A stretch of DNA of 64,000 bases from Kordia sp. TARA_039_SRF (GTDB taxonomy: Bacteria; Bacteroidota; Bacteroidia; Flavobacteriales; Flavobacteriaceae). The notes beneath the pieces were generated by a model. That model saw nothing but the letters and a program-made list of their open reading frames with translations, was not told where the DNA came from and made no database searches. The stretch is from contig SMNH02000003.1 in assembly GCA_006383075.2 (NCBI GenBank), positions 598,414-662,413 on the forward strand, written 5' to 3'. Shown one piece after another: positions 46,539-50,240 of this stretch. The position numbers and the translations under genes were made by a program. Every line of letters begins with the position of its first letter. Positions within the stretch are counted from its first letter, which is position 1.

Positions 46539-47481
46539 AACCATTACAATTTACGGAGAAAAAGTAGCGCCTGGCGAAGCAAAGTGGATTCAAATTCCAA
46601 TTGACCGCTTGCCGACAGGAACGCTGATTGATATTCCCGTATATGTGTACAACGCTAAAGAAGCAGGACCTACAATGTTGGTGCAAGGTGGTTTGCACGG
46701 CGATGAGATTAACGGTGTGGAAATTATCCGTAGAATGCTGTTTGAGAAACTATTTGAAGTGAAACGCGGCGCAGTGATTGTGTTGCCATTACTGAATATT
46801 TTCGGATTTATACATTTTTCGCGACAAGTACCTGACGGAAAAGATGTGAATCGTAGTTTTCCTGGCTTTAAAAAAGGTTCGCTAGCTTCACGAATTGCCT
46901 ATCAAGTAACCAACGAAGTATTGCCACAAGCTGATTTTGGCATCGATTTGCATACAGGTGGCGCGCAACGCAACAATCATCCGCAAGTACGTTTTACACA
47001 AGACATGGCGGATAGTGAAATGCTCGCGAAGGTTTTTAATGCGCCTTTTTATTTTTCTACATCTTTGATTGAGAAATCGTTCAGAAAAACGGCGTATGAT
47101 AAAAATATTCCCATCATTGTGTATGAAGGTGGTGAAAGTATGCGTTTTGACGAATATGCGATTAAAGAAGGCATACAAGGCATTTTAAACATCATGAAAC
47201 ACCAAAACATGATTGACAACATAGACCCAATGTTGATTGAACGGGAAGCTTCCACCCTACTTACCGAGCGTAAATGGCTTCGCGCGCCGACGGCTGGTAT
47301 GTTTGTTCCACAAGTTTTGAACGGAAGCTCTATTCAAAAAGATGACATTTTAGGATATATCACGGATACCTTTGCCAATTATTGTGAAGCCATCAAAGCG
47401 CCGTATGATGGTTTTGTATTTTGTATTAACAATCAGGCAGTGGTGAATTTGGGAGATGCGTTGTTGCATATAGGCTCTTAG
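46516..47481 (+). CDS. Succinylglutamate desuccinylase/aspartoacylase-family deacylase
   Basis: GGLHGDEINGVEI, DGKDVNRSFPG, DLHTGG zinc-binding motifs; overlaps rimK. Confidence 0.94.
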   Translation: MLGNSENKTITIYGEKVAPGEAKWIQIPIDRLPTGTLIDIPVYVYNAKEAGPTMLVQGGLHGDEINGVEIIRRMLFEKLFEVKRGAVIVLPLLNIFGFIHFSRQVPDGKDVNRSFPGFKKGSLASRIAYQVTNEVLPQADFGIDLHTGGAQRNNHPQVRFTQDMADSEMLAKVFNAPFYFSTSLIEKSFRKTAYDKNIPIIVYEGGESMRFDEYAIKEGIQGILNIMKHQNMIDNIDPMLIEREASTLLTERKWLRAPTAGMFVPQVLNGSSIQKDDILGYITDTFANYCEAIKAPYDGFVFCINNQAVVNLGDALLHIGS

Positions 47482-47504
47482 ATTCGCTTTCGCTATTAGA
47501 CCTG

Positions 47505-47522
47505 TTCCTGCGTAGGCAGGAA
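47505..47522. repeat. Short dispersed palindrome TTCCTGCGTAGGCAGGAA
   Basis: Same family as 57316-57333 and 59084-59103. Confidence 0.8.
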
Positions 47523-47568
47523 TCTGTTAGACTTGTTAGAAACGCTTACGCTTTAGATTTTTATGATA

Positions 47569-47680
47569 CGTCCTTGCGAGAAGCGTAGCAACGTGGCAAT
47601 CTTTTTGTATCAAAGCAGCATTGAGCAACGAAACTGACAGATTACTTCGTCATACTTCCTCGTAAAGACGTTTCAAAAAA
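47569..47680. repeat. Full inverted-repeat element (CGTC..TTGCGAG...GCAATCT / AGATTACTTCGTC...AAAGACG)
   Basis: Imperfect arms; its right part (47612-47680) matches 50172-50240 at 64/69 with the last 50 nt identical. Confidence 0.8.
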
Positions 47681-47727
47681 TCTCAATACTCAGTACTCAA
47701 TTCTCATATCTACTTAAACTACCAATC
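47676..47727. repeat. Direct repeat flanking NACHT gene, copy A
   Basis: First 37 nt (AAAAATCTCAATACTCAGTACTCAATTCTCATATCTA) identical to 49850-49886; overlaps the NACHT stop codon. Confidence 0.85.
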
Positions 47728-49683
47728 TAATAATTCGTTTTTTTCTTTTTCGGGGTTGTTTTTTTTGAGTTCTCTGAGCTTGTACATGCAAGCATTATAG
47801 TCTAAATTATTATTCATATGAGAGTTACCCATAATTTGATTTACAAATTTAAAATTATCTTTTAAATTCAAGATATTAGATTCACTATCATCTAGCATAT
47901 ATATATTACCTTCATCTATTTTGAAAGGCATATCAATGTATGTGTCAAAACGAGAATACTTTTTTATTAAATCAGGATAAATTGCACTAATTAATTTTTT
48001 AATCAATGCTAAATTTTGATAGTGTGTGGAAGCTATAAAGACATATCTATTGGGATTCTTAAGGATTTCTAGTTTCGCGGATTGATCTAAACTTAACAAT
48101 CCTTTAATTTTAGCTTTTACTAAATATTCATTGTAAACAACTGAAGCATTTCTCTCATAATCAATCTCTTTTGCTAAAATTATTACTGTACTTTTTTTTG
48201 TAAATACGTTTTCTATTCTATCAACAATATACTTATCTTCTAATTGAAAAGCATTATAACTCTTTACCCTAAATTCTTTAAAATCAATCAATAACCATTT
48301 TAATATGGTATGTTCAAAACCTTTTGGATCCAATTCATAGTATAAGATAAGGACATTATAAAAGCGTTGATTCTCTTCATCTAAATATATCTTCTTTAGA
48401 ATATCTACTCTACTTTCTTTTGCATCCATCCAAATAAACTTAGCAGCAAAATAATCCTGTAAAGACTTATGCGCCCATTTATAATTATTTCCTTCTTTTT
48501 TAAATAATGGAACTGTATTAAGTAGATCTTTTAAATAGTCACTAGTTTTAAATTTTAAATCTTCTGTTTGTCTTTTGCACTTTTCAATAAATGATATAAT
48601 ACTGTTTTTATCATATTCAACTTTATTGGCTTTTGAAGTGAAGAACCCTAAATATCTCAGCACACGCTCAAAATCATCAATATGCAGTTGGCTATATTTC
48701 TCTCGTTTCAGATAACCTTCTTTAGCAAGATCGTGTGCTTCAAATAATGCATCATAAACTTTTTGATAGAACTGGCTTTTCTTTACAGGAATATCTTTTT
48801 TATATTCATAAGATTTATATAATAGAGAAACCAAAAAAGGATTGCTTAAATATTCCTTTAGAGTTTCATCACTTTCTTCTAATTTTTCAATCAAACTATC
48901 TGCTATCTTGTTATGTCCGTAAGTATCGTACTTCGTTAATAGTTTATAAGCCTCTTCTTTTTCTAATGGTTCTATATGAAATTTCTGGAAGTCACCTAAA
49001 GAGGCTAATGAATCTTCAGGTCGTGAAGTAATTAAAAAATAATTACTCCCTGCTTTTTCAATAAACCGATGTAATTCTCGAATAGTAAATTCTCGGTCAA
49101 CTAAAGCTATTTCATCGTACCCATCAAATAGGAATATAAAATTGCCTTCATTGATTAACTTTAAGATAATATTTTGATTGATTTTTTTACCAATCTGAGA
49201 CATTTGATTTTGTATTTCTTTTAAAATACTATTCCTTTTTTTTATTTGACTTAATTCAATTAGTACAGGAATTCCCGCTTTTTGTTTAATAATAGATTGA
49301 AACAGTTTTTTAGTAATTGTAGATTTTCCCATTCCTGCAGTATCTTCTATCATAACCTTTTTGTACATTGGAAGTAAATCTTCTGGATAATGGTCTATTT
49401 CAACCTTTAAATTTTCTTCTATAGTTCCTACCCAAGAACTTATAGTTAAGGGTTGATATAATGTTTCCAGTTTTGTTTGCATGTTAGGGAAAGCTAACGT
49501 ATCAATTGTTATGAATTTAGTATAACGTCTTTCTAAATAATCACGTAGTTGGATTTCAACACTTTCTTGACTAATGCTTTTTATTTGAAATTTTTTGAAG
49601 ATTGACTGTATTTTAGGTAAGGCTATATCTTTTACAATAGGTAAAATTAAATTTTCAAGTATTGATTCTCCGAATTCGTTCAT
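47719..49683 (-). CDS. NACHT-domain NTPase (bacterial NLR-like, putative antiphage)
   Basis: Walker A VMIEDTAGMGKSTITKKL, Walker B NFIFLFDGYDEIA, YFLITSRPED sensor; followed by helical region. Confidence 0.9.
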   Translation of the reverse strand: MNEFGESILENLILPIVKDIALPKIQSIFKKFQIKSISQESVEIQLRDYLERRYTKFITIDTLAFPNMQTKLETLYQPLTISSWVGTIEENLKVEIDHYPEDLLPMYKKVMIEDTAGMGKSTITKKLFQSIIKQKAGIPVLIELSQIKKRNSILKEIQNQMSQIGKKINQNIILKLINEGNFIFLFDGYDEIALVDREFTIRELHRFIEKAGSNYFLITSRPEDSLASLGDFQKFHIEPLEKEEAYKLLTKYDTYGHNKIADSLIEKLEESDETLKEYLSNPFLVSLLYKSYEYKKDIPVKKSQFYQKVYDALFEAHDLAKEGYLKREKYSQLHIDDFERVLRYLGFFTSKANKVEYDKNSIISFIEKCKRQTEDLKFKTSDYLKDLLNTVPLFKKEGNNYKWAHKSLQDYFAAKFIWMDAKESRVDILKKIYLDEENQRFYNVLILYYELDPKGFEHTILKWLLIDFKEFRVKSYNAFQLEDKYIVDRIENVFTKKSTVIILAKEIDYERNASVVYNEYLVKAKIKGLLSLDQSAKLEILKNPNRYVFIASTHYQNLALIKKLISAIYPDLIKKYSRFDTYIDMPFKIDEGNIYMLDDSESNILNLKDNFKFVNQIMGNSHMNNNLDYNACMYKLRELKKNNPEKEKNELLDW

Positions 49684-49849
49684 ATTTTAAAGTCATTTTC
49701 TACAACCCTAAAGTTAAGATAAAGACGACAACTACACAATGAGGTTTTCCGTAAGAAAAATATAGCTACTTATGAGAAGCTGAATCACACTTCAGTTGCA
49801 CTCAATGTAAAAGTTCAGCTTGACGCTGCTTTCGTTTTTTAATGCATTG

Positions 49850-49900
49850 AAAAATCTCAATACTCAGTACTCAATTCTCATATCTATTTAACCACCAATC
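49850..49900. repeat. Direct repeat flanking NACHT gene, copy B
   Basis: See copy A (47676-47727). Confidence 0.85.
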
Positions 49901-49911
49901 CATTTTTGAGG

Positions 49912-50070
49912 TTCTTTACCATCTTTTTGCGGTTGTTTATCGTATTTTTGGGGTTCTGTAAGGGGTTTTACCCCCTAAAGAACCTGTTCGAAGGGGTTAT
50001 TTTAGGGGTAAAAGCGGTTGTAGAACCTCAAATAATAGGTTCGGAACCGCTTCGAAGCGGTTATACAACC
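49912..50070. repeat. Palindrome cluster with AAGCGGTT/AACCGCTT units
   Basis: Perfect 18-bp palindrome AACCGCTTCGAAGCGGTT (50045-50062); AAGCGGTT..GAACC..GGTTC..AACCGCTT hairpin (50012-50052); TTTTACCCCCTAAA/TTTTAGGGGTAAAA. Confidence 0.85.
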
Positions 50071-50171
50071 ACTTTTATGCTATGTTTTACTGCAAATAGA
50101 GAATAAGGAATTGCTTTTTGTGTTTGCCCAACCGCTTTTAATATCTAATTCATAGATTGAAATGATTGTTA

Positions 50172-50240
50172 AAGCAGCATTGAATACTAAAACTGACAGA
50201 TTACTTCGTCATACTTCCTCGTAAAGACGTTTCAAAAAAG
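50172..50240. repeat. Half copy (right part) of the 47569-47680 element
   Basis: 50 identical nt AAACTGACAGATTACTTCGTCATACTTCCTCGTAAAGACGTTTCAAAAAA. Confidence 0.85.

What the first reader, a model, noticed from the sequence alone, without database searches (positions are those of the whole stretch)
47569..50240. NACHT NTPase cassette bounded by two sets of repeats, one touching its stop codon
Seen: a 69-nt block at 47612-47680 recurs at 50172-50240 (64/69, last 50 nt identical), and a 51/52-nt block at 47676-47727 recurs at 49850-49900 (first 37 nt identical). The second block includes the NACHT stop codon. The gene looks more AT-rich than its rimK/deacylase and BNR neighbours. Established: bacterial NACHT (bNACHT) proteins are antiphage NLR-like factors. 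Inference: the gene was acquired or can be excised by recombination between these repeats; no integrase is present.
Basis: partly seen in the sequence, partly recalled or inferred. Interest (0 to 1): 0.72.

Follow-up and report, generated by a model that had tools for sequence, protein, structure and literature searches.

The report
Bacterial NLR-like gene with swapping sensor
The repeats around this bacterial immune-receptor-like gene are common genome litter found dozens of times between other genes, but the gene itself is a probable phage-defence receptor whose chassis is conserved at one fixed spot in several Kordia species while its sensor end has been replaced or scrambled almost beyond recognition.

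Summary
The inference drawn from it fails. Both repeats belong to dispersed intergenic families with dozens of copies in this genome. None of 25 and 30 sampled copies lies inside an ORF, and many touch a neighbour's stop codon. The 69-nt pair exists only in this genome. The same NACHT gene sits at the same place, without that pair, in four other Kordia species, and two clean empty sites carry no repeat copy. So the repeats do not mark or move a cassette.

The gene (47719-49683, minus) is a short bNACHT NTPase: NACHT plus SNaCT5, nearest solved fold NLRC4. It occurs in 5 of 11 Kordia genomes, always single-copy at this site. Residues 100-450 are 77-86% identical across species, residues 475-605 only 11-41%, and the last ~20 are conserved again. 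Segments give conflicting trees, so alleles recombine. Related genes lie in prophages. Best reading: an NLR-like antiphage receptor under allele exchange and sensor diversification, not repeat-driven excision. Defence activity is untested.

The parts
47719..49683 (-). bNACHT (SNaCT5-type) STAND NTPase gene, 654 aa, ATG to TAG
   Evidence: Pfam NACHT 3e-9, SNaCT5 4e-17; AF2 model pLDDT 80, top solved fold NLRC4 E=1e-14
48473..49386 (-). conserved core, about aa 100-404: P-loop AGMGKST (aa 116-122), Walker B FLFDGYDE, winged-helix region
   Evidence: 77-86% identity among Kordia orthologues; P-loop and FDGxDE invariant in 16 family members; secondary structure
47869..48258 (-). hypervariable part of the C-terminal SNaCT5 domain (aa 476-605), proposed sensor
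   Evidence: 11-41% identity among Kordia orthologues although cores are 77-86% identical
47722..47868 (-). conserved C-terminal tail (aa 606-654, ...EKEKNELLDW)
   Evidence: last 24 aa 67-88% identical in Kordia; Y..C/A...K..I/L..E pattern also in prophage homologues
49698..49752 (-). conserved 5' region: box ACGGAAAACC then CATTG...TAACTTTA (Bacteroidetes-type promoter, inferred)
   Evidence: 82-90% identity over 62-104 nt in all five loci carrying the gene; same box at six other sites of the genome
47612..47680 (+). dispersed repeat 1, copy on the stop side; present only in this genome
50171..50239 (+). dispersed repeat 1, copy on the start side; orthologous copy in sister species G005 (91%)
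47676..47721 (+). dispersed repeat 2, copy overlapping the NACHT stop codon
49850..49891 (+). dispersed repeat 2, second copy; orthologous copy in G005 (83%)
47472..49608 (.). tract that differs sharply from sister species G005 (18-88% against ~90% on both sides); right edge near NACHT aa 30, left edge at the deacylase stop
   Evidence: per-100-column identity

Best explanation
47719-49683 encodes a short NLR-like (bNACHT) receptor with an N-terminal helical hairpin, a NACHT NTPase, a winged helix, and a C-terminal SNaCT5 domain. Proposed action, inferred from studied bNACHT and other STAND proteins: the variable SNaCT5 domain senses a phage product or a host change during infection, the NACHT module exchanges nucleotide and oligomerises, and the N-terminal part triggers growth arrest or death. 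The gene occupies one fixed chromosomal site in the genus Kordia and is lost or gained there. Its alleles are exchanged and recombined between lineages, with divergence strongest at the sensor end, by ordinary homologous recombination in the conserved chassis and flanks. The surrounding repeats are unrelated dispersed intergenic elements. Shown: domains, predicted fold, synteny, variable C-terminal domain, mosaicism, dispersed nature of the repeats. Inferred: antiphage function, sensor role of the variable domain, homologous recombination as the route.
For: Domains and fold. One SNaCT5 gene in 5 of 11 Kordia genomes, always beside the deacylase. Conserved upstream region in all five. Variable domain 11-41% against core 77-86%. 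The sister pair G000/G005 has flank dS ~0.5 but NACHT core (aa 101-450) dS >1.2. Trees conflict by segment: aa 1-60 rejects G005+G008 (p=8e-6), while aa 301-470 groups G005+G008 at 100/99 and rejects G000+G005 (p=8.5e-5). Same pattern in prophage homologues L165/L172: core 77%, variable part 27%. Repeats dispersed and strictly intergenic.
Against: No defence activity was tested and no defence genes adjoin. Only five alleles were available, one genome per species. Clades for the AU tests were chosen after seeing the identity windows, so the p-values are optimistic. Fast divergence of the variable domain without exchange cannot be excluded, because dS is near saturation (dN/dS below 1). The whole aa 1-450 tree is unresolved. 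The K. algicida copy is frameshifted, so the gene may be dispensable.
Confidence: 0.68

Rival explanations
1. One reading: a NACHT cassette acquired, or excisable, by recombination between the flanking direct repeats.
For: The repeats are real and in direct orientation; a 69-nt 93% pair 2.56 kb apart could recombine. The gene is AT-rich and patchy.
Against: Both repeats are dispersed families. The repeat-1 pair is absent at the same locus in four species carrying the gene. Empty sites G010 and G006 have no repeat-1 copy.
Confidence: 0.06
2. Vertical inheritance from the Kordia ancestor with repeated loss; the C-terminal domain simply evolves very fast under diversifying or relaxed selection, with no allele exchange.
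For: Same site and conserved upstream region in all carriers; clean empty sites are compatible with loss; aa 1-60 follows the flank tree for G000/G005.
Against: The sister pair differs as much in the NACHT core (synonymous sites too) as distant species do, with sharp edges, and the aa 301-470 tree rejects the species pairing.
Confidence: 0.2
3. Targeted sensor diversification by a dedicated machine (diversity-generating retroelement or silent cassette conversion).
For: The variable block is confined between constant regions.
Against: No second SNaCT5 copy in any Kordia genome. The only reverse transcriptase hit of the genome is an 815-aa frame about 395 kb away. Indels and whole-domain divergence do not look like point-wise adenine mutagenesis.
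Confidence: 0.04

Closest known systems
Bacterial NACHT proteins with SNaCT domains (bNACHT clade 14, e.g. bNACHT02/11/12; described in PMC12169576)
   Same: Central NACHT, short C-terminal SNaCT domain, no recognisable effector domain
   Different: Carries Pfam SNaCT5; clade placement was not tested here; found at a fixed Kordia locus; no phage data
PHROG 18297 (NACHT proteins found in phage/prophage genomes, function unknown)
   Same: Full-length match E=1e-128; viral-contig homologue L163 matches the same PHROG; 14 of 16 aligned members, most of them from viral contigs, carry SNaCT5
   Different: Those lie in viral contigs, e.g. L163 between a DnaD-like replication gene and the terminase small subunit; the Kordia gene is chromosomal between housekeeping genes
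Mammalian NLRC4/NLRP3 (NACHT NLRs)
   Same: NACHT to winged-helix fold (Foldseek E=1e-14, TM 0.52 by query length)
   Different: No leucine-rich repeats, no CARD/PYD; about 15% identity
DGR-diversified STAND/NACHT sensors (PMC10907252)
   Same: STAND protein with a diversified C-terminal sensor
   Different: No DGR here; the variable block is a whole SNaCT5 domain with indels, not a C-type lectin variable repeat

Membership tests
bNACHT / STAND NLR-related protein | NACHT NTPase domain with P-loop and Walker B motifs | tested here: met
   Pfam NACHT above cut-off; AGMGKST and FDGxDE invariant in 16 homologues
bNACHT / STAND NLR-related protein | tripartite build: N-terminal part, NACHT plus winged helix, C-terminal sensor | tested here: met
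   AF2 model, and NLRC4/NLRP3/NOD2 as best solved folds; SNaCT5 at the C-terminus; that it senses is inferred
bNACHT / STAND NLR-related protein | protects cells from phage | not testable with these tools
   needs plaque assays; no PADLOC model matched
SNaCT5 (PF22711) family | profile match above curated cut-off over the full domain | tested here: met
   63.4 bits against cut-off 27, profile 1-195/196
repeat-bounded mobile cassette | repeats specific to the element's ends | tested here: not met
   dozens of dispersed copies elsewhere, all sampled copies intergenic
repeat-bounded mobile cassette | repeat pair present wherever the gene is present | tested here: not met
   the pair is absent in G002, G003, G005 and G008, which carry the gene
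repeat-bounded mobile cassette | empty site with one repeat copy | tested here: not met
   G010 (105 bp) and G006 (280 bp) intervals hold no repeat-1 copy beyond a 24-nt partial match; same-species strains not available
integron gene cassette | attI/attC site next to the gene | tested here: not met
   no attI-like element of the Kordia type in this region; nearest on this contig is C3:433632, more than 200 kb away
DGR target | adjacent reverse transcriptase and template repeat | tested here: not met
   only RT hit in the genome about 395 kb away in an 815-aa frame; no second variable-domain copy

The most novel reading that the evidence does not exclude
A fixed chromosomal 'receptor socket': in Kordia one bNACHT gene keeps its promoter, chassis and C-terminal tail while its SNaCT5 sensor is serially replaced by recombination, with prophage-borne relatives as a possible pool of alleles. 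This would be a bacterial parallel to allelic NLR loci of plants and fungi.
Probability: 0.3. Interest if true: 0.6.

Novelty: new member of a known kind. Interest (0 to 1): 0.4.

Why it matters
It corrects a tempting misreading: direct repeats around a defence gene in flavobacteria need not mean mobility, because such repeats can be common intergenic litter. It also offers a clean natural series (same site, same promoter, same chassis, five very different sensors, two empty sites) with which to test whether the SNaCT domain decides which phages a bNACHT recognises.

Tried and rejected
Repeat-driven excision: rejected. DGR or silent-cassette diversification: no support. Defence island or hotspot: neighbours and the alternative contents of the interval in other species are not defence genes (sensor kinases, secreted and beta-lactamase-fold proteins). 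Known structured RNA: no Rfam match in the window. The structured intergenic stretch 49895-50145 folds better than shuffles (z=-3.8) but looks like a decayed gene end and was not pursued. Sequence relatives in the PDB: none; only the fold search worked. First AF2 model from 6 sequences was poor (pLDDT 55); 16 sequences gave pLDDT 80. Literature on Kordia NACHT: none relevant in the held library.

Full report
OBSERVATION. Neither core is expected by chance in 64 kb. The NACHT gene is 27% GC against 36-41% in its neighbours.

WHAT THE REPEATS ARE. In the whole genome (27 contigs, 4.59 Mb) repeat 1 has 42 matches at E<=10, of which 20 are at about 1e-4 or better. Repeat 2 has 44 matches, about half of them at 5e-4 or better. 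Of 25 and 30 copies examined none lies inside an ORF of 100 aa or more. Convergent gene pairs hold 12 and 12 of them, divergent pairs 1 and 1, and many repeat-2 copies lie within a few bases of a stop codon. A repeat touching a stop codon is therefore a usual position for this family, not a sign of a cassette end. In the sister species G005 (Kordia periserrulae, identified) the start-side copy of repeat 1 is present at the orthologous place (91%), but the stop-side copy is absent. G002 (K. algicida OT-1), G003 and G008 also lack the pair. The stop-side copy thus appeared in this lineage while the gene was already there, or was lost elsewhere; either way it did not deliver the gene.

THE LOCUS ACROSS KORDIA. 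The rimK-deacylase pair is present in all 11 genomes of the genus. The NACHT gene follows it, on the opposite strand, in five (G000, G005, G002, G003, G008). In G002 it is split by a frameshift. SNaCT5 occurs once in each of these five genomes and nowhere else in the genus. G010 has the deacylase 105 bp from the DUF4440 gene and G006 has it 280 bp from the BNR gene: clean empty sites without repeat 1. G001, G004, G007 and G009 hold unrelated genes there. Presence needs at least four changes on the rimK-deacylase tree, but most of that tree is unresolved.

THE PROTEIN. Pfam gives NACHT and a full-length SNaCT5 domain. A model from 16 homologues (pLDDT 80, pTM 0.75) has an N-terminal helical hairpin, NACHT core, winged helix, and an alpha/beta C-terminal domain that ends in helices. 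The best solved folds are NLRC4, NLRP3 and NOD2. PADLOC has no matching model and the neighbours are not defence genes.

THE UNUSUAL PART. Between Kordia species residues 100-450 are 77-86% identical, residues 475-605 only 11-41%, and the last 24 residues 67-88%. The sister pair is the sharpest case. Flanking genes are 92-97% identical in protein with dS about 0.5-0.7, and the 628 nt upstream of the start codon are 87% identical. The NACHT core (aa 101-450) has dS above 1.2 and the sensor block 15-23% identity. DNA identity falls from ~90% to 18-57% at the deacylase stop, is 65-88% through the NACHT core, and returns to ~90% near NACHT residue 30. Segment trees disagree: residues 1-60 keep G000 with G005 and reject G005+G008 (p=8e-6); residues 301-470 join G005 with G008 (100/99) and reject G000+G005 (p=8.5e-5). 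The clades were chosen after inspecting identities, so these p-values are optimistic, but 28-37 log-likelihood units is a large conflict. This is intragenic mosaicism. Whether the sensor block itself was swapped, or diverged in place after the exchange, cannot be settled, because synonymous sites are nearly saturated.

RELATIVES ELSEWHERE. The protein matches PHROG 18297 over its full length (E=1e-128), and 28 viral contigs encode relatives. In L163 the gene lies between a DnaD-like helicase-loader gene and the terminase small subunit, i.e. as prophage cargo. Fourteen of 16 aligned members carry SNaCT5. Viral-contig pair L165/L172 repeats the Kordia pattern (N-terminus 76%, core 77%, variable part 27%), while L161/L162 are alike throughout. 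The wider family has the same constant-variable profile, with a weaker rise at the C-terminus.

MECHANISM. From published bNACHT work (PMC12169576: C-terminal sensing, NACHT oligomerisation, clade-14 SNaCT proteins without a visible effector) the likely action is sensing by the C-terminal domain, NTP-dependent oligomerisation, and growth arrest or death through the N-terminal part. None of this was tested here. The exchange route that fits best is homologous recombination through the conserved core and flanks.

VERDICT. Observation confirmed; cassette-by-repeats not supported; bNACHT identity supported; recombination at the locus supported by a different route. It is a new member of a known kind with an instructive diversification pattern.

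Noticed in passing
L112, L114-L118 (own genome C2:122600-122729, C4:117716-117845, C2:348707-348836, C3:433526-433656, C5:319210-319339, C11:60227-60356); also L119-L148 in other Kordia: A ~130-bp element (ACGGAAAACC-CATTGTGTA promoter ... AACAGGAATTCCTGTTATACATACG|TTR) precedes diverse single genes (OLD-like ATPase, TIR-like, unknowns; names by eye only). Several of these genes are followed by the reverse complement of the bases after the junction, as in integron attC sites. Counts range from 0 (K. algicida) to 12 sites per genome: it looks like dispersed attI-plus-promoter sites each holding a gene cassette.
   Followed up: partly
own genome C4:313022-313246 with element at C4:313326; G004 C205:2951-3272; G009 C3:141534-141801; G010 C10:53345-53611: Short reading frames matching the C-terminus of integron integrase (TIGR02249, below cut-off) sit just upstream of a second type of the same attI-like element: probable remnants of integron integrase genes.
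   Followed up: partly
window 49736-49752 (-): The NACHT promoter region shares the box ACGGAAAACC plus CATTGTGTA, with equal spacing to TAnnTTTA, with those cassette promoters; possibly a common regulator.
   Followed up: partly
window 49895-50145: GGTTCT/CGGTTG palindrome-rich stretch, conserved only in sister G005 (~87% over the upstream interval), folds better than shuffles (z=-3.8); minus-strand frame ends ...EPQKYDKQPQKDGKEPQKWIGG*, perhaps a decayed gene end.
   Followed up: partly
G002 (K. algicida OT-1) C1:3132091-3134068: The orthologous NACHT gene is split by a frameshift near residue 292-296; pseudogene or sequencing error.
   Followed up: no
own genome C3:253085-253471 (L189): The only reverse-transcriptase domain found in the genome lies in an 815-aa frame, larger than a typical DGR enzyme; possible defence RT or intron protein.
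   Followed up: no
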